Below are positions 5,966 through 32,224 of a stretch of DNA of 64,000 bases, piece by piece. The notes under the pieces are model-generated. The model saw only the letters and a list, made by a program, of their open reading frames with translations. It was not told where the DNA came from and did not search any database. Position 1 is the stretch's first letter. Every line of letters starts with the position of its first letter. The translations under genes were made by a program, and so were the position numbers. This stretch comes from Myxococcus dinghuensis (GTDB taxonomy: Bacteria; Myxococcota; Myxococcia; Myxococcales; Myxococcaceae): NCBI RefSeq assembly GCF_024198235.1, contig NZ_JAKCFB010000041.1, forward strand, positions 1 to 64,000, in the 5' to 3' direction.

Positions 5966-7471
5966 ATGCGATTCGCGGTAGCAGGGTGGTCGAGCTTGGG
6001 GTGTGTCGCGCTGTTCGCCTGCGGCGGGTCCTCCGACAGCGGGGACGGCCCGGAGCGCAGCGGCAACGCGGAGGTGCTCGCGAACGCCCGCACGCTGACG
6101 TGTGGAAACCTCCAGGTGGAGAGCGGCTCCATCGGCGCGGGGCAGACGGTCCAGGGCCTGCACACGCAGACGCTGTCGGGCACGCAGGACCGGTGGGCGG
6201 AGTACGTCGAGTTCGCGCCCGGCACGTCCATCACCTGCACCTACGCGCTGCCCGCGGACGTGCGCGCCGCGGACGTCGTCGCCGCCGAGCTCGGCGTCAA
6301 CTACCGTGGGCCGCTGAAGTCGGAGATGCGCTGGCTGTTCGAGGCGTGGGACTACGCCGCGGGCGCCTGGGTCCTCGTCGGTGACAACACCTTCGCCCAG
6401 TCCTGGAAGTGGACCGCCACCTCGCTCGCGCTGGGCTCCCCGCAGCGCTTCGTCAGCGGGGGCCCGGTGAAGCTGCGCTACCGCACGACGTCCTCGGCGG
6501 ACGCCTCGCTGCTGGACCTGCTCGTGGTGCGCGTGCAGCCCGCGGCCACGGACGCGGGCACCCCGGGCGACGCGGGCACCCCGCCGGACTCCGGTACGCC
6601 CGGTGACGCGGGCACGCCCTCGGACGCGGGGACCTCCACCGACGCCGGCACGCCCGTGCCGTGGGAGGGCGTCAGCAGCTTCACCTACCAGCTCACCAAC
6701 TACCCGCAGGGGAAGCTCGACACCCTCGCCAACTCGAAGTTCAACCTCGCCGTCGTCGAGCTGTCGCGGGACGGCCACTCCGACTGGTTCACCGCCGCCG
6801 AGATCTCCGCCCTGAAGTCGCGCGGCAAGCAGGTGCTCGCGTACTTCGAGATTGGCGCCATCGAGGAGTACCGCCCCGAGTGGTCCCAGGTACCCGCGGA
6901 CCTGAAGCTCGGCCCCGTGGATGGCTGGCCCGACGAGCAGTACGTGAAGTACTGGGACGAGCGCTGGTGGCCCATCGTCAAGGGGCGCATCGACCAGGCG
7001 CTCGCCGCGGGCTTCACCGGCTGCTACCTCGACATGGTCGTGACGTACGAGGAGATTCCGGCGGACGCGGCCGGCACCCACCGCGCGGACCTCGCCAAGA
7101 AGATGGTGGCCCTCATCGCGCGCATCAACCAGTACGCCAAGGCCCGCAACCCGGCCTTCAAGGTGATGCCACAGAACTCCCCGGAGCTGGTGGACGACCC
7201 GGCCTACCTGCCCGCCATCGACGGGCTGGGCATGGAGGACATGTACTGGTCCGACGACACCGCCTGCAGTGAGTCCTGGTGCGAGGAGAACCGCGTGAAC
7301 GCCGCCCGGGTGCGGGCCGCGGGCAAGCTGGTGCTCACCGTCGACTACGCCACCCAGGCCTCGCACGTGGCGGACGCCTATACGCGCTCGCGCGCCGCGG
7401 GCTTCGTCCCCTACGTCACCGTGCGCGCGCTGGACCGGATGACGGTGAACGCGGGGTGGGATCCGCAGTAG
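5966..7471 (+). CDS. GH114-type (TM1410-like) endo-alpha-1,4-polygalactosaminidase family lipoprotein
   Basis: A 501-residue lipoprotein: signal peptide with Cys19 (LFAC), then an uncharacterised domain to about residue 190. A hinge of tandem D-A-G-T-P type repeats follows (about 194-232), then a TIM-barrel domain from VSSFTYQLTNYP to the end. The barrel shows GH114 features: QVLAYFEIGAIEEYRPEW near residue 290, GCYLDMV near 352 with a catalytic-type Asp, and GMEDMYW near 422. GH114 enzymes cleave galactosaminogalactan-like polymers, so the protein may process an exopolysaccharide at the cell surface. That substrate is inferred from the family. GGAGAGCAC precedes the ATG. It stands alone, convergent with the EamA gene. 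Confidence 0.82.
   Translation: MRFAVAGWSSLGCVALFACGGSSDSGDGPERSGNAEVLANARTLTCGNLQVESGSIGAGQTVQGLHTQTLSGTQDRWAEYVEFAPGTSITCTYALPADVRAADVVAAELGVNYRGPLKSEMRWLFEAWDYAAGAWVLVGDNTFAQSWKWTATSLALGSPQRFVSGGPVKLRYRTTSSADASLLDLLVVRVQPAATDAGTPGDAGTPPDSGTPGDAGTPSDAGTSTDAGTPVPWEGVSSFTYQLTNYPQGKLDTLANSKFNLAVVELSRDGHSDWFTAAEISALKSRGKQVLAYFEIGAIEEYRPEWSQVPADLKLGPVDGWPDEQYVKYWDERWWPIVKGRIDQALAAGFTGCYLDMVVTYEEIPADAAGTHRADLAKKMVALIARINQYAKARNPAFKVMPQNSPELVDDPAYLPAIDGLGMEDMYWSDDTACSESWCEENRVNAARVRAAGKLVLTVDYATQASHVADAYTRSRAAGFVPYVTVRALDRMTVNAGWDPQ
6548..6661 (+). repeat. Tandem 15-bp repeats encoding Asp-Ala-Gly-Thr-Pro linker
   Basis: About seven imperfect copies of a GACGCGGGCACSCC-like unit encode TDAGTPGDAGTPPDSGTP and so on between the two domains of the GH114 lipoprotein. 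Such DAGTP hinges are common in myxobacterial surface lipoproteins and are likely to vary in copy number. Confidence 0.8.
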
Positions 7472-7475
7472 CGGC

Positions 7476-8441
7476 TCACGCCGCCCGGCGTCCCTCCACC
7501 GGAGCGAGGGGCGCCGACGGCGCCGGAGCCGTCACCCGCTGCGTGAGCCGCACCCCCGCGAGCACGAGCGCGCCACCCACGGCGATCTCCCAGTGCAGCG
7601 CCTCGTCCAGCAGCGCCCACGCGGCCACGGCGGTCGCCGCGGGCTGGAGGTTGGAGAAGATGGCCACCTTCGAGGCGGACACCTTCGACAGCGCGTAGAA
7701 CCAGAGCAGGTACGCCACCACCGACGTCAGCAGCCCCAGGTAGCCGATACACGCCTTGGCCGCTCCGCTCGTCGCCAGCAGCGCGCCGACGTCGCCGTAG
7801 AAGGGCGCGAAGGGCAGCATCAGCACCGAGCCCATCACCATGCACCACGCCGTCGCGTGCAGCGGGCCGTAGGTCGCGACGAGCGGCTTGCCCTCGGTGG
7901 TGTAGGCCACCCACGCCAGCACCGCGAAGAGGATGAGCACGTCGCCCACCACCGAACCCCGCGCGTCCGCCAGTCCGCGCCCCAGCAGCAACACCACCAC
8001 GCCCACGAACGCGATGGCGATGCCCGCCAGCGTCCGGCCCGACGAGCGCTCCTGGCCCCGCGCCAGGCTCAACAGGTAGACGCCCAGCGGGGTGAGCGCG
8101 TAGAGCAGCGCCCCGTGCGCGGCGGTGGAGCGCGCCAGCCCGCTGAAGAAGAACACCTGGTTCACCGGCCCCGCGAGCAGGCCCAGCATCACCACGCGAC
8201 CCCACGCCTCCCGCGGGGGCAGCTTGCGCCCCGGCAGGAACGCCAGCATCAGCGCGAACACGACACCGCTCAGCAGGAAGCGCCACAGCACCACGCTGAG
8301 CGGCGGCAGCTCCGTCATGGCGCGCTTGGCGGTCAGGTACGTGCCGGCGCTGATGAGGACCTGGAGGAGGAGCGCGGCGTACACCCCACCGAGCGAAGGC
8401 GCGGCGGGGGAAATCAGGGGTCGAGCTGGCGAAGCGCCCAT
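7476..8441 (-). CDS. EamA family (DMT superfamily) transporter
   Basis: A 321-residue integral membrane protein with ten hydrophobic segments arranged as two five-helix EamA repeats. TYLTAKRAMTELPPLSVVLWRF in the first repeat is the typical EamA start, and the second repeat carries ATAVAAWALLDEAL near the C-terminus. Members export or import metabolites such as amino acids, nucleosides or vitamins by proton exchange; the substrate cannot be read from sequence. Its start overlaps the end of queG by 28 bp, so it is translationally coupled to the third position of the adenosyltransferase-queG operon. A role in handling a queuosine- or corrinoid-related metabolite is possible but speculative. Confidence 0.88.
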   Translation of the reverse strand: MGASPARPLISPAAPSLGGVYAALLLQVLISAGTYLTAKRAMTELPPLSVVLWRFLLSGVVFALMLAFLPGRKLPPREAWGRVVMLGLLAGPVNQVFFFSGLARSTAAHGALLYALTPLGVYLLSLARGQERSSGRTLAGIAIAFVGVVVLLLGRGLADARGSVVGDVLILFAVLAWVAYTTEGKPLVATYGPLHATAWCMVMGSVLMLPFAPFYGDVGALLATSGAAKACIGYLGLLTSVVAYLLWFYALSKVSASKVAIFSNLQPAATAVAAWALLDEALHWEIAVGGALVLAGVRLTQRVTAPAPSAPLAPVEGRRAA

Positions 8442-9427
8442 TGCGCGGCGCTACGTACCAAGTCGCTCGGGTCGCCGCAGAGCTTTTCGATCAACGCCCG
8501 CGAGTCCGCCTGCCTGGCGACGCCCAGTGCGTACACGGCGTTGCGCCGCAGACCGTCATAACGCGCGCGGGCCAGCGCCGTACCGGGGATGAGCTGCTCG
8601 TACTGGGTGAGCGTCAGCCCCGCCAGCTCCCGGGTGCCCAGCTCCGCCACCGCGCGGGGCGCGAAGCGTGGATGCGCCGCGAACACGGGCTTGCGGTTGA
8701 GCGGACACACCTGCTGGCAGATGTCGCACCCGAAGATGAGGTTGTCGAACTTGAGCCGGAAGGGCTCGGGCACCTCCTGCTCGCGGTTCTCGATGGTCTG
8801 GTAGGACAGGCACGCCCTCGCGTTCACCCGGCCGTTGCCCACCAGCGCCCCCGTGGGACACGACACGAGGCAGCGGCGGCACGCGCCACACCGGTCCGCC
8901 GCCGGGCCGTCCGCGTAGTCGTCCACCTCCTTGTCGAGCACCAGCGTGGCCAGCAGCACCCACGAGCCGTAAGGCTCCGTGATGAAGCACCCGTTCTTGC
9001 CCACGTAGCCCAGGCCCGCGCGCGCGGCCCACACCTTCTCCATCAACGGCGCGCTGTCCACGCCGCCATACGTGCCCAGCCCCGGGTACATCACCGTGAT
9101 GGACTTGCGGAACGCCTTCATCCGGTCGCGCAGCGTGGAGTGGTAGTCCCGCCCCCGCGCATACCGGGCGATGGGCGAGCCCACCGACTGCGCGTCGTCA
9201 CGCCAGTAGTTGTTCGCGAAGGAGATGACGGTCTTCGCGCCGGGCAGGAGCCGTCCCACGTCCAGCCGCTCGTCCGCCCGTTCCCCCATCCAGTCCATGT
9301 CCGCGGCGAAGCCCGCCTCCAGCCACTCCATGAGGAAGGAGGGCGGGATGGGCTCCGCGCGAGCGAAGCCCACCAGGTCGAAGCCGACGGCACGGGCGAG
9401 GTCGCGGAGATGGGCGGTGGGCAACAC
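8414..9427 (-). CDS. queG: Epoxyqueuosine reductase QueG
   Basis: The 337-residue cytosolic protein catalyses the last step of queuosine synthesis, reducing epoxyqueuosine at the tRNA wobble position (GUN anticodons). It carries two 4Fe-4S cluster sets: Cys180, 183, 186 and 190 (CGACRRCLVSC), and Cys206, 234, 237 and 241 (CDICQQVC). QueG enzymes bind cobalamin, and the family segment GVDSAPLMEKVWA lies near residue 122. A HEAT-like C-terminus (LRRNAVYALG) ends the protein. The start is GTG at 9427, in the frame that gives a full-length N-terminus. It lies 24 bp after the cobalamin adenosyltransferase gene and overlaps the EamA gene by 28 bp. Confidence 0.95.
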   Translation of the reverse strand: MLPTAHLRDLARAVGFDLVGFARAEPIPPSFLMEWLEAGFAADMDWMGERADERLDVGRLLPGAKTVISFANNYWRDDAQSVGSPIARYARGRDYHSTLRDRMKAFRKSITVMYPGLGTYGGVDSAPLMEKVWAARAGLGYVGKNGCFITEPYGSWVLLATLVLDKEVDDYADGPAADRCGACRRCLVSCPTGALVGNGRVNARACLSYQTIENREQEVPEPFRLKFDNLIFGCDICQQVCPLNRKPVFAAHPRFAPRAVAELGTRELAGLTLTQYEQLIPGTALARARYDGLRRNAVYALGVARQADSRALIEKLCGDPSDLVRSAAQWALRQLDP

Positions 9428-25647: not shown

Positions 25648-26529
25648 ATGACGTCCCCCGCGCCCAGCTCCCGCCGGACGGTGCTCCAACTGCTCGTCGT
25701 GTGCCTCTGCGTCGTCGGCGGAGTGTCCGTCGTCGCCCTGGGCACGGTGGACCGCTGGGTCGAGCCGGGCCCCACGACGGCCGCCGTCGCCCCCCTCGCG
25801 GAGGGCGAGGACGCGGAGGAGCTGGGCGCGGTGCTGCTGCCGCCCGACACGCCCCTGGAGCAGGCGCAGACGTACGACTGGACCACGGAGAGCCTCCGCC
25901 CGCCCCGGCACCGCGTGACGTATGGCCTGGGCACCACGCTGGATGCGTGGCTCGAGGACCAGCACCGCGCCTTCGCGCGCCGGCTGCGCTACCGCTCCCT
26001 GGGCGACGAGCGCTTCACGTATCAGGCGCCGCGCGGCTGCTCCGCGGACATGCGGTGCATCTACGAGGAGCTCATCCGCAGCAACGCCGGGCCGGTGAAG
26101 GCCCTGGGCGAGCGCTTCGAGGCCTCCATCCGCGAGCGCGACCTCGACGCCGCCCAGGCCGCGCAGCTCATCCTCGGCTTCGTGCAGCGCATCCACTACG
26201 AGCTGCCCCGGGACGAGCCCTTCGGCATCGTCCCGCCCGCGCTGGTGCCCGCGCGCAACCGAGGCGACTGCGACTCCAAGGCGGTGCTCGCGGTGATGCT
26301 GCTCCAGCAGGTGGGCATCGACGCGGTGGTGCTGTACTCGGACCCGCTCGCCCACGCGGCGGTGGGCGTGGACCTCCCGGGAGGGCGCACGCGCCTTCGA
26401 TACGGCGGGCGCAGCTACCAGTACGCGGAGGTCACCACCGACGGCTGGCCGCTGGGCATGATTCCGCCCCGCTACGACAAGCCCCACCTGTGGGTCGTCC
26501 TGCCGGTGGGGCCGGGCGTCAACGGCTGA
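25648..26529 (+). CDS. Membrane-anchored transglutaminase-like protein
   Basis: A 293-residue protein with an uncleaved N-terminal membrane anchor (LLVVCLCVVGGVSVVALGTV, residues about 14-33) and a periplasmic domain. Near residue 210 the motif RNRGDCDSKAVLAVMLL carries the Cys of a transglutaminase/cysteine protease-like core; the His is in PLAHAAVGVD. The aromatic-rich strand RSYQYAEVTTD could supply the acidic third residue. It is coupled to the DUF350 gene by a 4-bp spacing. The substrate is unknown; proteolysis or amide hydrolysis is more likely than cross-linking in such proteins. It converges with the ADOP permease gene after a 12-bp gap. Confidence 0.8.
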   Translation: MTSPAPSSRRTVLQLLVVCLCVVGGVSVVALGTVDRWVEPGPTTAAVAPLAEGEDAEELGAVLLPPDTPLEQAQTYDWTTESLRPPRHRVTYGLGTTLDAWLEDQHRAFARRLRYRSLGDERFTYQAPRGCSADMRCIYEELIRSNAGPVKALGERFEASIRERDLDAAQAAQLILGFVQRIHYELPRDEPFGIVPPALVPARNRGDCDSKAVLAVMLLQQVGIDAVVLYSDPLAHAAVGVDLPGGRTRLRYGGRSYQYAEVTTDGWPLGMIPPRYDKPHLWVVLPVGPGVNG

Positions 26530-26541
26530 GCCCCGCACGGC

Positions 26542-28974
26542 CTACTCCGCCCGCAGCGCGATGATGGGGTCCACGCGCGTGGCCCGCCGCGCCGGCAGCC
26601 ACGTGGCCACGAACGCCACCGCGCCCAGCAGCGCCGCCACGCCCACGAACGTCCACGGGTCGCGGGCCGTCACGCCGTACAGCAGCGGCCCCAGCACGCG
26701 GGACAGTCCCCAACTCAACGCGAGCGACAGCCCCAGGCCCACGACCATCCCCAGCGCGGTCAGCCGCAGGCCCTGCCCCAGCACCAGCCGGAGCACGTCC
26801 ACCCGCGCGGCGCCGAGCGCCATGCGGATGCCCATCTCCCGCGTGCGCTGCACCACCATGAACGCGATGACGCCGGAGATGCCCAGCGCCGCGAGCAGCA
26901 GCGACACGCCGGCGAACAGCCCCATCAACAACGCCGACAGCCGCCGGGAGCCCGTGGCGTCGTCCATCAGCCGCGCCAGCGTCGTCACGTCGAAGAGGGG
27001 CACGTCCTCGTCCACGTCGCGCAGCACCGCCTCGACCCCCGCGCGCACCGCCTCCGGCGCCCCCGACACCGGCCGGACCACCAGCCCCAGGTTGGACGAG
27101 GGCCGCTGCGCCAGCGCCCAGTACGCGGTGGGCCGCGCGGGCAGACCCGGGTTGGCTTCACGCAGGTCCTCGACGATACCCATCACCGTCGCCCACTGGG
27201 CGCCCTGCGCGTGCAGCTTCAGCCGCTGCCCCAACGCGTCCCCCTTCGGCCAGTAGAGGTCCGCGAACGTCCGGTTGACGACCAGCACCCACGGCGCGCG
27301 GGCGTCATCCGAGTCCTGGAGCATGCGGCCCTCGCGCAGCCTCACCCGCAGCGTCCGCAGGTAGCTGGCGGACACCGCGCGGTACTGCACCGCGGGCAGC
27401 CGCTCGGCGGAGTCCAGCTTGCGCCCCTCGATGTCGAAGGTGTTGTCCCGCTGCCCGGACAGCGGCAGGAGGTTGGCGAGCCCCGCGGACTCCACCCCGG
27501 GCAGGGCGTGCAGCCGCGTCAGCAGGTCCTCCTGGAAGGCCGCCTGACGCGGGGCCCCCGCGTAGCTGGCCTCGGGCAGGGAGAGCTGGCCGACGAGCAC
27601 GCCGTCGGACCGGAAGCCCGGGTCCACCTCGCGCAGCGCGAGGAAGCTCCTGCCGAACAGGCCCGCGCCCACCAGCAGCACCAGCGCGAGCGCCACCTGC
27701 GCCACCACCAGGCCGCCCCGCAGCCGCCCCGTCGCGCCATCCGCCGTCCCACGCGCGCCCTGGCGCATCGCCAGGTCCAGGTCCACGCGGCTCGCCCGGA
27801 GCGCGGGCACGAGCCCGAACACCCCGCCCGTCACCAGTGACACGCCCGCGGTGAACAGGAGCGACGCTCCATCCAGCCGCACCTCTCCGGCCCGCGGCAG
27901 CGCGTCCCCCACCAGCGCCAGCAGCGCGTCCATGCCCCACACCGCGAGCAGCACGCCGAGCACGCCCCCGGCCACGGCCAGCAGCAGGCTCTCCGTCAGG
28001 AACTGCGCCACCAGCCGGCCCCGGCCCGCGCCCAGCGCCGCGCGGATGGCCACCTCGCGGCCACGCGCCACGCCGCGCGCCAGGAGCAGGTTGGCCACGC
28101 TCGAGCACGCCACCAGCAGCACGAAGCCCACCGCCCCCAGGAGCAGCCACAGCGTGCCGCGCACGCCGCCCACCGTCCGCTCCTCCAGCGACTTGAGGGA
28201 GATGGACCAGCCCGCGTCCTTGTAGTGCGCCGGATGCGCCTCGCCGAGCACGCGTGACGCGCGCGCCAGGTCCTCGCCCGCGCCCTCCACCGACAGGCCG
28301 GGCTTCAACCGCCCCAGCACGGACAGGTAGCGCGCCCCCCGGTAGGTCTCCGTGAAGTGCTCGGCAGGAGGCGCCAGCGGCATGAAGACGTCCGTGTCGA
28401 CCGGGTAGATGCCCTCTTCCGGGAGCACGCCCACCACCGTGTAGGAGTCTCCATCCAGCCGCAGCGTCCGGCCCAGCACCTCCGGGTCCCCGCCGAAGTG
28501 CGCGCGCCAGGCCTTGCGCGTGAGCACCACCACCTGCGCGTGGCCCACCCGCTCCTCCTCCGCCGTGAAGGCGCGGCCCAACGTGGGGGCCACGCCGAGC
28601 ACCTGGAAGAAGGAGGCCGTGGCCTGCGTCACCACCAGACGCCGGGGCTGCGCCCCACCGGTGAGCGTCGCGTTGCCCTGGACGAAGGCGCCCAGCTCCG
28701 AGAAGGCACGCAGCTGCTCGCGGAAGCCCTGGTACTCCGGCACCGACGAGGAGACCTCCGCCAGGTCCCACGCCCGCAGGTTGGTGTAAACGCGCATGAG
28801 CCGCTCGGGCTCGCGGAAGGGCAGCGGCCGCAGCAGCACGCCGTTCACCACGCTGAAGACCGCGCTCGTGGCGCCGATGCCCAACGCCAACGCGAGCACC
28901 GCCATGAGGGTGAAGCCGGGGCTGTTGCGCAGGGTGCGCAGCGCGTACTTCACGTCCTGCGGGAAGGTCTCCAT
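26542..28974 (-). CDS. ADOP-type ABC transporter permease (MacB/FtsX-like)
   Basis: The 810-residue protein begins [20 protein letters not shown], the typical start of the 'acidobacterial duplicated orphan permease' family. It contains two copies of MacB periplasmic domain plus FtsX domain: first helix about 20-42, periplasmic region to about 265, then three helices; the same layout is repeated with the last helices at about 690-800. [16 protein letters not shown] closes the protein as in MacB. The duplication means one chain could form the full permease, working with an unlinked ATPase. Substrates of ADOPs are unknown. No ATPase gene adjoins it. The upstream space holds a kinase/Thg1 chimera. 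Confidence 0.92.
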
Positions 28975-29050: not shown

Positions 29051-29097
29051 GAGGCTGTTCGATTGCGCGCAGCGCGGTCCCACGACCGAACAGCCTC
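29051..29097. other. Perfect 11-bp inverted repeat
   Basis: GAGGCTGTTCG (29051-29061) and CGAACAGCCTC (29087-29097) are exact complements separated by 25 bases. It lies 76 bp upstream of the ADOP permease ATG and at the 3' end of the chimeric pseudogene. It could be a terminator for the former thg1 gene or an operator; no T-tract is present. Confidence 0.5.
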
Positions 29098-29119
29098 CCG
29101 AGAGCGAGGCGACTCGAGG

Positions 29120-29709
29120 CGCCTCGGGGAGCGGACTGGCGAGCACCTCGCGCAGGTACCGCGCGAAGCCCTCCTTCATGGGCAGGTCCGCGTCCACGCC
29201 CAGCCGGCGGCGCGTGGTCCGCGTGCGCGAGCCGTCGCGCGGGTCCACGCCCTCCTTCGTGGAGCGCTCCCAGCGGATGAGCGAGCCGCGGCGCTGCCAC
29301 GCCGGCAGCTCGTCGAAGTGGATGCCGCGCTGGAAGAGCAGCTCGTGCTCGAAGGCCACCGGCCGCCCGTCCAGTTCGCGCGTGGCCTGCGCCGCGGAGA
29401 GCCCCTCCTTGCGCAGCGTCCAGTAGCACCAGCCCTGCAACGCGCACCGGGTGCCGTCCGACTGGCGCCATGCGAAGGAGTCCAGCACCGCGCGCGCGTC
29501 CGCGCCCAACCACACGCGCCCGTCGAACATCGCCGGCACGCCCGCCCCGCCGACAGCGCCTCCTCCACGACCCGCCGCTGACGCGCTTCCTCGTCTCGCG
29601 CGCTCGGCCACAGGTCCTTGCCCACCAGCACGTGGCTCGACGCGAAGCGCTCGCGGAAGAAGCTGCTCTTGCCCGAGCCCTGCAGCCCGATGAACACGAC
29701 GAGTTCCAT
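29120..29709 (-). pseudogene. Chimera of P-loop kinase start and Thg1-like 3' half, out of frame
   Basis: From ATG 29709 the frame reads MELVVFIGLQGSGKSSFFRE, a Walker A loop, and continues to about 55 residues (VVEEALSAG), like the start of a small P-loop nucleoside/polynucleotide kinase. Near 29545-29560 the kinase similarity ends. In a different frame, MFDGRVWLGADAR and FAWRQSDGTRCALQGW follow, with LLFQRGIHFDELPAWQRRG, then TTRRRLGVDADLPMKE. That is the C-terminal half of a bacterial tRNA-His guanylyltransferase-like (Thg1/TLP) protein. The kinase remainder and the Thg1 N-terminal catalytic half are missing, the two parts are out of register, and the Thg1 frame reaches no stop until deep inside the ADOP gene. 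Deletion between two adjacent genes is the simplest inference. Confidence 0.72.
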
Positions 29710-29911: not shown

Positions 29912-32224
29912 ATGACCTCGTCATTCTCGTCGTATGCGGGACGCTGGCGTCGACTCTCTGTCATGGCCCTGGGCTGGGGCCTCATCGCACCGCTGCCGGT
30001 GCTCGCGGCGGCGAAGGACACGCCGAGGCCCGGCGCCGCGCGGAGCGCCTCGGCGCGCGTGGTGGAGGCGGCCACGGCGCTCGCGGCGAAGCCCATCTCC
30101 GGGCTGGCCGCGGCTGCGACGGGCCGTTTCGCGCTCGTGACGAGCGCGGGCCTCGTCTTCCACCGCACGGACGCCACGGTGCAGTCGCTGAAGACGCTCC
30201 AGGTGTCGGGCTCGGCGCTCCAACTGCACACCTGGGAAGAGGTGGACGCGGACGGACGGCGCCAGGACTTCTTCGCCTACAGCCGGGGTGGGACGCAGCT
30301 CGCCGGGCGCGTGCAGGCCACCACGTACCAGGTGCGGCTGGAGCACCTCCAGTTCGACCCGCTGCGCGACGCCCAGCCCCTGGTGTCCGGGCTCCTGATG
30401 GCGGACGCGAAGAACACGCTCCAGTTGGTGCAACTGGCGGCCACGCCCGTCCCGGAGATGCGCGAGGCGCTGGAGCGCGAGGGCAAGGTGCTGCGCTTCC
30501 TCACGGACCACACCTTCCTGGTGGAGCTGGACGCGGACGCGCGCAAGCGCGTGGCGGAGCTGCCCTTCGTGCGCTGGGTGGGCCCGTACCACCCGGAGTA
30601 TCGCGTGGAGCCCGTCCTGCGCGCGGCCCTCCTGGGTCGCGCGGCGGCGCTCGCGCCGCAGCGCTACTCCATCATGGTGGGTGAGCGCGGCGCGGCGCGG
30701 CAGGGCGAGGTCGCGGACGCGGTGAAGGCCCTGGGCGGCGCCGTGGAGCTCGTCGAGCCGGGGGGCCTGCGCGTCGAGGCCACGCTCTCCCAGCCCCAGT
30801 TGGAGCAGCTCGTGCGCTCCAACGCCGTGCAGTACATCGACCGCTGGGGTGGCCCCGGCGAGGTGGACATGAACAACGTGCGCCTCGTGGGCGGCGCCGC
30901 CGCGCTCGAGACGCTCGAGGGCTGGACGGGTCAGGGCGTGCGCGGTGAAATCTTCGACACCGAGCTGCGCACCACCCACCAGGAGTGGGCCACCCCGCCC
31001 ATCATCCACAGCACCTCCAGCGCCGGCTCCGCCCACGGCACCAGTTGCTACAGCATCAACTTCGCGCGGGGCGTCGACGCCAACGCGCGCGGCATGCTGC
31101 CCTCCGGCCAGGGCATCTTCTTCCTCTACAGCCAGTCCACCCAGTTCGGCGGCGCCAAGTCCCGCTACGACATCAACCGCGAGCTGACGGACCCGGCGGG
31201 CCCCTACCGCGCGGTGTTCCAGACGTCGAGCGTGGGAAGCACGCTGACCACCGCGTACACCACCATCTCCGCGGAGGTGGACGACTACCTGTTGCGCGCG
31301 CCCATCCTCAGCACCCAGTCGCAGAGCAACGCCGGCTCCACCAGCTCGCGTCCCCAGGCGTGGGCCAAGAACATCGTGTCCGTGGGCGGCATGTACCACT
31401 ACGACAACGCCGACCGCCCGGATGACCGCTGGAACGGCGGCGCCAGCACCGGCCCGGCCGCCGACGGCCGCATCAAGCCGGACCTGTCGTACTTCTACGA
31501 CGGCATCCGCGCGGCCAACAACACCAGCAACACCTCGTACTACAACTTCAGCGGCACCAGCGCGGCCACGCCCCAGACGTCGGGCCACTTCGGCCTGCTG
31601 TTCCAGATGTGGCACGAGGGCGTGTGGGCGGGCTTCGGCGGCAAGGCGGACGTCTTCGAGAGCCGCCCGCAGATGGCCACCGCCAAGGCGCTGATGATCA
31701 ACATGGCGTACCGCTACAACTGGCTCGCGGGCGGCTCCAACGGCGACCTGACGCGCGTGCGCCAGGGCTGGGGCACCGCGGACCTGAAGCGGCTGTACGA
31801 CCGCGCCGCGGTGACGAGCATCATCGACCAGACGGACACGCTGCTGCCGCTGGGCATCAACGAATACAAGGTCGTGGTGGCCGCCGGCGAGAAGGAGCTC
31901 AACGTCACCCTCGTCTTCACGGACCCCGCCGGCACGGTGGGCGCCGCCCAGGCGCGCATCAACGACCTGACCCTGCGTGTCACGTCGCCCGCGGGCATCG
32001 TCTTCTACGGCAACAACGGCCTGTCCGCGGGCAACACCTCCACGGCCGGGGGAACCCCCAACAAGGTGGACACGGTGGAGAACGTCTTCCTCGCCGAGCC
32101 CCAGGCCGGCGTCTGGAAGGTGGAGGTGCTGGGCGATGAAATCGTCCAGGACGCCAAGCTCGACACCCGCGTCATCGACGCCAACTACGGCCTGGTGGTG
32201 AGCGGCGGCATCATCCAGAAGTAG
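29912..32224 (+). CDS. S8 family serine protease (subtilase), exported
   Basis: The 770-residue precursor has a signal peptide (LSVMALGWGLIAPLPVLAAA, about residues 15-34), then a propeptide-like region to about 330. The subtilisin domain shows Asp349 (GEIFDTE), His375 (SAHGTS), oxyanion Asn473 (SQSNAGS) and nucleophile Ser550 in GTSAATP. The C-terminal 150 residues form a beta-sandwich resembling a P-domain (LNVTLVFTDPAG, VENVFLAEPQAGVWKVEVLG). It is likely a secreted protease for feeding on prey or protein debris. AGGAG at 29901 precedes the ATG. The His lies unusually close (26 residues) to the Asp, as in kexin-unlike bacterial subtilases with short insertions. Confidence 0.9.
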   Translation: MTSSFSSYAGRWRRLSVMALGWGLIAPLPVLAAAKDTPRPGAARSASARVVEAATALAAKPISGLAAAATGRFALVTSAGLVFHRTDATVQSLKTLQVSGSALQLHTWEEVDADGRRQDFFAYSRGGTQLAGRVQATTYQVRLEHLQFDPLRDAQPLVSGLLMADAKNTLQLVQLAATPVPEMREALEREGKVLRFLTDHTFLVELDADARKRVAELPFVRWVGPYHPEYRVEPVLRAALLGRAAALAPQRYSIMVGERGAARQGEVADAVKALGGAVELVEPGGLRVEATLSQPQLEQLVRSNAVQYIDRWGGPGEVDMNNVRLVGGAAALETLEGWTGQGVRGEIFDTELRTTHQEWATPPIIHSTSSAGSAHGTSCYSINFARGVDANARGMLPSGQGIFFLYSQSTQFGGAKSRYDINRELTDPAGPYRAVFQTSSVGSTLTTAYTTISAEVDDYLLRAPILSTQSQSNAGSTSSRPQAWAKNIVSVGGMYHYDNADRPDDRWNGGASTGPAADGRIKPDLSYFYDGIRAANNTSNTSYYNFSGTSAATPQTSGHFGLLFQMWHEGVWAGFGGKADVFESRPQMATAKALMINMAYRYNWLAGGSNGDLTRVRQGWGTADLKRLYDRAAVTSIIDQTDTLLPLGINEYKVVVAAGEKELNVTLVFTDPAGTVGAAQARINDLTLRVTSPAGIVFYGNNGLSAGNTSTAGGTPNKVDTVENVFLAEPQAGVWKVEVLGDEIVQDAKLDTRVIDANYGLVVSGGIIQK

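What the first reader, a model, noticed from the sequence alone, without database searches (positions are those of the whole stretch)
29120..29709. Chimera of a P-loop kinase and a Thg1-like tRNA-His guanylyltransferase
Seen: 55 residues of a kinase start with a good Walker A are followed, out of frame, by the C-terminal half of a bacterial Thg1-like protein; both genes lack their other halves. Known: Thg1-like proteins add or repair nucleotides at tRNA 5' ends, and a kinase could prepare such ends. Inference: a tRNA 5'-end repair pair once lay here in tandem and one deletion fused the remnants. The intact version in related genomes would be an understudied RNA repair system.
Basis: partly seen in the sequence, partly recalled or inferred. 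Interest (0 to 1): 0.6.

Follow-up and report, generated by a model that had tools for sequence, protein, structure and literature searches.

The report
Broken kinase and Thg1 repair genes
This is the wreck of two neighbouring genes, an RNA-end kinase and a Thg1-like tRNA repair enzyme, fused by one deletion of about 635 bases; close relatives keep both genes intact, and the pair has been in print since 2010, so the find is real but mostly ordinary.

Summary
On the minus strand, 29709-29545 encodes the first 55 residues of a polynucleotide-kinase-like P-loop protein; from 29548, out of frame, follows the C-terminal half of a Thg1-like protein (about residues 113-256). The nearest relative (G011) has both genes intact and overlapping at this place; the window lacks 635 nt relative to it, with GGGG at the junction. 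Of 27 genomes of the genus, 22 have both genes intact and overlapping; 5, the window's included, carry five different lesions. The window's genome showed no second Thg1 and no second close kinase. Of 80 fetched Thg1 loci (the best 80 of 90), 62 have the kinase upstream on the same strand. The intact pair is not new: Anantharaman et al. 2010 (PMC2904730) described bacterial Thg1 next to a P-loop polynucleotide kinase and proposed this mechanism. The window copy is a pseudogene pair. Repeated loss inside one genus, often keeping the kinase, is the one point that my searches did not find in print.

The parts
29545..29709 (-). Remnant of polynucleotide-kinase-like P-loop protein, residues 1-55 with Walker A GLQGSGKS; residues 56-157 of the intact G011 protein are gone
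   Evidence: intact protein PF13671 AAA_33 9.2e-16 and PNK kinase domains in PDB
29545..29548 (-). Deletion junction: GGGG stands at both ends of the missing stretch in G011 (7301 and 7936 of L033), 635 nt missing
29117..29548 (-). Remnant of Thg1-like protein, about residues 113-256; N-terminal catalytic part (D33, K47, D78, E79 in G011 numbering) gone, stop codon lost, frame differs from the kinase
29912..32224 (+). Flanking subtilase-family protein (Peptidase_S8), divergently oriented; synteny anchor, not part of the pair
26542..28974 (-). Flanking MacB/FtsX-type permease downstream of thg1; matched at this place in 1 (G011) of 19 relatives' loci compared; not part of the pair

Best explanation
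The locus is a dead copy of a two-gene bacterial unit, pnk-thg1. In intact relatives the first gene makes a small 5'-OH polynucleotide kinase of about 157 residues; the second, whose start overlaps the end of the first, makes a Thg1-like 3'-5' polymerase of about 255 residues. Inferred working: the kinase puts a phosphate on a damaged 5'-OH RNA or tRNA end, Thg1 activates that 5' phosphate with ATP or GTP and rebuilds missing 5' nucleotides against the 3' strand of the acceptor stem. In this strain one deletion of about 635 nt, probably by recombination or slippage at a short GGGG, removed the kinase C-terminus and the Thg1 catalytic N-half and fused the rest out of frame, so that neither enzyme can be made from here. 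Shown by sequence: anatomy, intact relatives, deletion. Inferred: the biochemical coupling, and the cause of the deletion.
For: Alignment to G011 with breakpoints. 22 of 27 genus genomes with both genes uninterrupted, kinase end overlapping thg1 start by 8-17 nt. Conserved flanks. Families: AAA_33 and the kinase domain of polynucleotide phosphatase/kinase chains; PF04446 + PF14413 and Thg1 structures. 62 of 80 fetched Thg1 loci with the kinase upstream on the same strand, 54 of them within 30 nt or overlapping. Other lesions in G013, G017, G021, G024. No second copy found in the window's genome. A G is encoded just before the tRNA-His gene, opposite C73 (my reading), so that loss of G-1 addition would be tolerated.
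Against: No reads to rule out an assembly error. The remnant shows little extra wear: window-G011 dN/dS over the Thg1 half is 0.36; 2 of 54 invariant positions changed; 5 synonymous to 10 nonsynonymous changes on the window branch against 6 to 8 on the G011 branch; in the kinase piece 2 to 4 against 1 to 2 and 1 of 15 invariant positions changed. So the deletion is recent or the test too weak. The enzymatic coupling was not tested. 17 of the 80 Thg1 loci have room upstream but no such kinase, and some relatives keep the kinase without Thg1, so the pair is not obligatory.
Confidence: 0.93

Rival explanations
1. Assembly error: the strain really has both genes and the contig joined two GGGG-containing stretches wrongly.
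For: The genome is a draft of 124 contigs and the junction lies in a short G-run of a high-GC region.
Against: A 4-nt repeat is short for a misjoin of unique sequence (general knowledge); searches of the genome with the intact kinase and Thg1 found no other good piece (next best E 0.27 and 0.19); the thg1 stop is also gone; lesions with other breakpoints exist in four other genomes, two of which (G017, G021) are listed as single contigs.
Confidence: 0.04
2. A working fusion: the remnant is translated, by a frameshift or an internal start, into a kinase-Thg1 or a short Thg1 C-terminal protein with a new role.
For: The Thg1 frame stays open from 29611 to 27305, and the remnant is still 81% identical to G011 with dN/dS 0.36 between them.
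Against: The frames differ; the kinase part lacks two thirds of its fold and the Thg1 part lacks the conserved carboxylates and lysine; the frame without its stop runs into sequence read in another frame by the permease gene; other genomes lost different pieces.
Confidence: 0.03

Closest known systems
Bacterial Thg1 + P-loop polynucleotide kinase neighbourhood (Anantharaman, Iyer and Aravind 2010, PMC2904730)
   Same: Same two families side by side; [quoted passage not shown]
   Different: The window copy is broken. The paper also reports macro-domain and RNA-ligase neighbours in a subset; the neighbouring window genes that I scanned (four) are not of these kinds.
Bacterial Thg1-like proteins (TLPs), e.g. 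Bacillus thuringiensis (PMC3701042, passages) and M. xanthus TLP (PMC6471195, passages)
   Same: The intact G011 protein matches PF04446/PF14413 and the Thg1-like chain 4kgk.
   Different: The window remnant lacks the N-terminal half with the metal-binding carboxylates.
Pnkp kinase domain (polynucleotide phosphatase/kinase chains 3u7g, 1yj5; chains 4gp6, 4jst, labelled Metallophosphoesterase)
   Same: The intact 157-aa kinase aligns over residues 2-133 to the former and 2-143 to the latter.
   Different: Stand-alone kinase without phosphatase or ligase modules; the window remnant has only the first 55 residues.
Pnkp1-Rnl-Hen1 RNA repair complex (PMC4411300, start of abstract in a listing only)
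   Same: Also pairs a 5' end-healing protein with an RNA-end enzyme.
   Different: Uses a ligase and Hen1, not a 3'-5' polymerase; not seen among the window neighbours scanned.

Membership tests
Thg1 / Thg1-like protein | Thg1 catalytic domain (PF04446) with metal-binding D and DE and the activation lysine | tested here: not met
   The window remnant begins at about residue 113 and has no PF04446 match (one search gave only two sub-threshold matches, E 0.65 and 0.89, elsewhere in the genome). Met in G011; D33, K47, D78, E79 invariant in the 9 relatives aligned
Thg1 / Thg1-like protein | C-terminal Thg1 region | tested here: met
   PDB Thg1 chains match the remnant; G011 hits PF14413. The remnant itself does not reach PF14413 at E<=1
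Thg1 / Thg1-like protein | 3'-5' nucleotide addition to tRNA 5' ends | not testable with these tools
   Needs an enzyme assay on an intact relative
Polynucleotide 5' kinase (PNK, AAA_33) | Walker A P-loop | tested here: met
   GLQGSGKS in the window; AAA_33 E 0.00069, 20.4 bits, below the cut-off of 27, over 41 residues
Polynucleotide 5' kinase (PNK, AAA_33) | Complete kinase domain | tested here: not met
   Residues 56-157 missing in the window; met in G011 (58.9 bits against cut-off 27)
pnk-thg1 gene pair | Kinase directly upstream of thg1, same strand | tested here: met
   Order kept in the remnant; intact in 22 of 27 genus genomes and seen in 62 of 80 fetched loci

The most novel reading that the evidence does not exclude
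In this genus the pnk-thg1 unit is being lost again and again: five different lesions in 27 species-level genomes, three of which remove Thg1 while sparing the kinase wholly or nearly so, and one of which breaks the kinase while sparing Thg1. Together with relatives that keep the kinase without Thg1, this would mean that the two enzymes are not an obligate couple, that the unit is a conditional (stress or conflict) RNA repair function under patchy selection, and that the small kinase has a job of its own.
Probability: 0.4. Interest if true: 0.4.

Novelty: already known. Interest (0 to 1): 0.22.

Why it matters
As a gene pair it supports, with more genomes, a 2010 prediction whose role in the cell is, as far as the passages I saw say, still open. 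The natural series of intact, Thg1-less and kinase-less congeners offers comparison strains for asking what bacterial Thg1-like proteins do in the cell. The remnant itself has no expected function.

Tried and rejected
Thg1 by Pfam and NCBIfam on the remnant alone: no hit at E<=1; replaced by comparison with intact relatives and PDB sequences. Phage relatives: no tblastn match of the remnant at E<=1e-5 in 50,697 phage records. Relaxed selection as a sign of age: weak, and partly against decay. Another P-loop protein upstream of the 17 kinase-less Thg1 loci: one (L131) has a long ORF with a P-loop that does not look like this kinase, none of the others showed one within 700 nt. A pattern for the P-loop was written wrongly and printed False in every row; that column is disregarded, and the P-loops are seen. 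The first tRNA-His pattern was mis-spaced and found nothing; the corrected one found the gene. A hairpin after the remnant folds well in the window (z -2.1) but not in G011 (z +1.1), so no conserved terminator is claimed.

Full report
What is there. Read on the minus strand, an ATG at 29709 opens MELVVFIGLQGSGKSSFFRERFASSHVLVGKDLWP..., the start of a P-loop kinase, and from about 29548 a different frame reads ...FDGRVWLGADARAVLDSFAWRQSDGTRCALQGWCYWTLRKEGLSAAQATRELDG..., the C-terminal half of a Thg1-like protein.

Intact relatives. A search of 100 genomes (the window's own and 99 relatives) with the Thg1 remnant matched 30, own genome included; 25 of the 27 of the genus matched. Regions around 19 of these matches (a twentieth region, the start of the window's own contig, was not used) were compared with the window's genes. 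In 16 of the 19 the start of the kinase was found upstream of thg1; L040 (G017), L041 (G054) and L051 (G029, a 4.5-kb contig) gave no match to the first 56 residues. Where both genes are whole, the kinase start lies about 450-480 nt before the thg1 start. The pair lies beside the subtilase-family gene (window 29912-32224) and an ORF that I labelled tgl (25648-26529; no Pfam hit, the label is only my impression). A MacB-type permease gene lies between thg1 and that ORF in the window and in G011, and had no match in the other 18 regions.

The deletion. Against G011, the closest relative by the match, window similarity runs from the kinase start to 29545 and resumes at 29548 with about residue 113 of Thg1. 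The stretch between, 635 nt in G011, is missing, and GGGG stands at both of its ends. Lost are kinase residues 56-157 and Thg1 residues 1-112, which hold D33, K47, D78 and E79, invariant in nine aligned relatives. By position these correspond to the metal-binding carboxylates and the activation lysine described for BtTLP and human THG1 (passages of PMC3701042; the correspondence is mine, from the alignment to human THG1). The stop codon of thg1 in G011 has no counterpart in the window, where the frame stays open to 27305.

Families. The intact G011 kinase hits PF13671 AAA_33 (9.2e-16) and, in the PDB, polynucleotide phosphatase/kinase chains (best 3.8e-11) and the chains 4gp6 and 4jst (4.5e-9 and 6.1e-9). 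The intact G011 Thg1 hits PF04446 and PF14413 and Thg1-family structures, best 5axk at 8.8e-34.

State of the pair in the genus. The genus group holds 27 genomes, the window's included. In 22 of 27 both genes are uninterrupted, kinase 155-158 aa and Thg1 252-256 aa as counted from the aligned starts, and they overlap by 8-17 nt. In 5 of 27 they are damaged: the window's own (both genes); G013 (470 nt lost from thg1 after its first codons, kinase whole); G017 (140 nt lost from the kinase, P-loop part included, Thg1 whole); G021 (633 nt lost, only about the last 41 Thg1 residues left, kinase whole); G024 (two gaps of about 308 and 438 nt, Thg1 gone but for a scrap, kinase tail altered). The breakpoints differ in all five. 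The aligned pieces overlap by 5 to 8 nt at the junctions of G000, G013 and G021, a sign of microhomology, and not in G017. No PF04446 match at E<=0.001 remains in G000, G013, G021 or G024. The flanking tgl and S8 genes are present in G013, G017, G021 and G024. For comparison, a 496-base query from the start of the S8 gene found no match at this place in 2 of 27 (G010, G019).

Wider picture. PF04446 matched in 33 of 100 genomes; the kinase in 38 of 61, the window's own remnant counted. Several genomes have a kinase match but no PF04446 match: G034, G036, G071, G081, G082 and G083. I looked at the surroundings of the kinase in five of these (not G082) and in G061, which has a Thg1 gene on another contig: no Thg1 lay near the kinase (best tblastn E 0.35) and no common partner was evident. 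G080 has a partial kinase match directly before its Thg1 match. A scan of species genomes with the Thg1 alignment gave 90 confirmed loci, of which the best 80 were kept; they include several of the same genomes. Of these, 62 of 80 have the kinase upstream on the same strand, 54 of them within 30 nt or overlapping; 18 have none, one of these cut by a contig end. Organism names span myxobacteria, cyanobacteria, actinomycetes and planctomycetes among others. The choice favours sequences close to the myxobacterial query, so 62 of 80 is not a rate for all bacterial Thg1 genes.

Selection. Over the Thg1 half, window and G011 differ with dS 0.227 and dN 0.081, dN/dS 0.36. At 54 positions invariant in all 28 other sequences, the window remnant differs at 2; when each of the 28 is left out in turn, 24 differ at 0, with L018 (2), L002 (1), L025 (1) and the distant L030 (11) as exceptions. 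Polarised changes were 5 synonymous and 10 nonsynonymous on the window branch, 6 and 8 on the G011 branch, 16 unresolved. In the kinase piece they were 2 and 4 against 1 and 2, 7 unresolved, with 1 of 15 invariant positions changed. L024 (G013) was left out of the Thg1 test because it is truncated, and L025 (G017) out of the kinase test. The signal of decay is weak, which fits a young deletion.

Why the loss is bearable. In this genome a G stands directly before the tRNA-His gene called by ARAGORN, opposite C73 (the reading of position -1 is mine), so Thg1 should not be needed to add it (inference from general knowledge of bacterial tRNA-His). The searches found no other close kinase or Thg1 in the genome.

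Compared with what is known. [quoted passage not shown] PMC6471195 (passages) notes that M. xanthus TLP appears limited to a single G addition. The listings (10 to 20 shown of up to 67 papers) held no title on repeated loss of the pair in myxobacteria; only open-licence papers are held, and I did not read those listed.

Verdict. Observation confirmed, inference supported, system already known, window copy very probably non-functional. The modest new point is the repeated independent loss inside one genus and the partial independence of kinase and Thg1.

Noticed in passing
L037 (G013) 7579-8321; L040 (G017) 7698-8823; L060 (G021) 6200-6828; L061 (G024) 5990-6519: Four other genomes of the genus carry different damage to the same gene pair, three sparing the kinase wholly or nearly so and one sparing Thg1.
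   Followed up: partly
L062-L067, kinase near the middle of each: Kinase relatives stand without Thg1 beside them in more distant genomes of the family and order; no common partner gene was evident.
   Followed up: partly
window 29052-29096: A 10-nt perfect inverted repeat (AGGCTGTTCG/CGAACAGCCT) just beyond the thg1 remnant folds into a strong hairpin, but the G011 sequence does not fold likewise.
   Followed up: partly
window 26542-28974: MacB/FtsX permease gene between thg1 and the 25648-26529 ORF, matched at this place only in G011 among 19 relatives' regions.
   Followed up: no
L084, L089, L090, L097, L109, L113, L118-L122, L128, L129, L131, L136, L138, L143: Thg1 genes of cyanobacteria, actinomycetes and others without the upstream kinase; what replaces it, if anything, was not determined.
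   Followed up: partly
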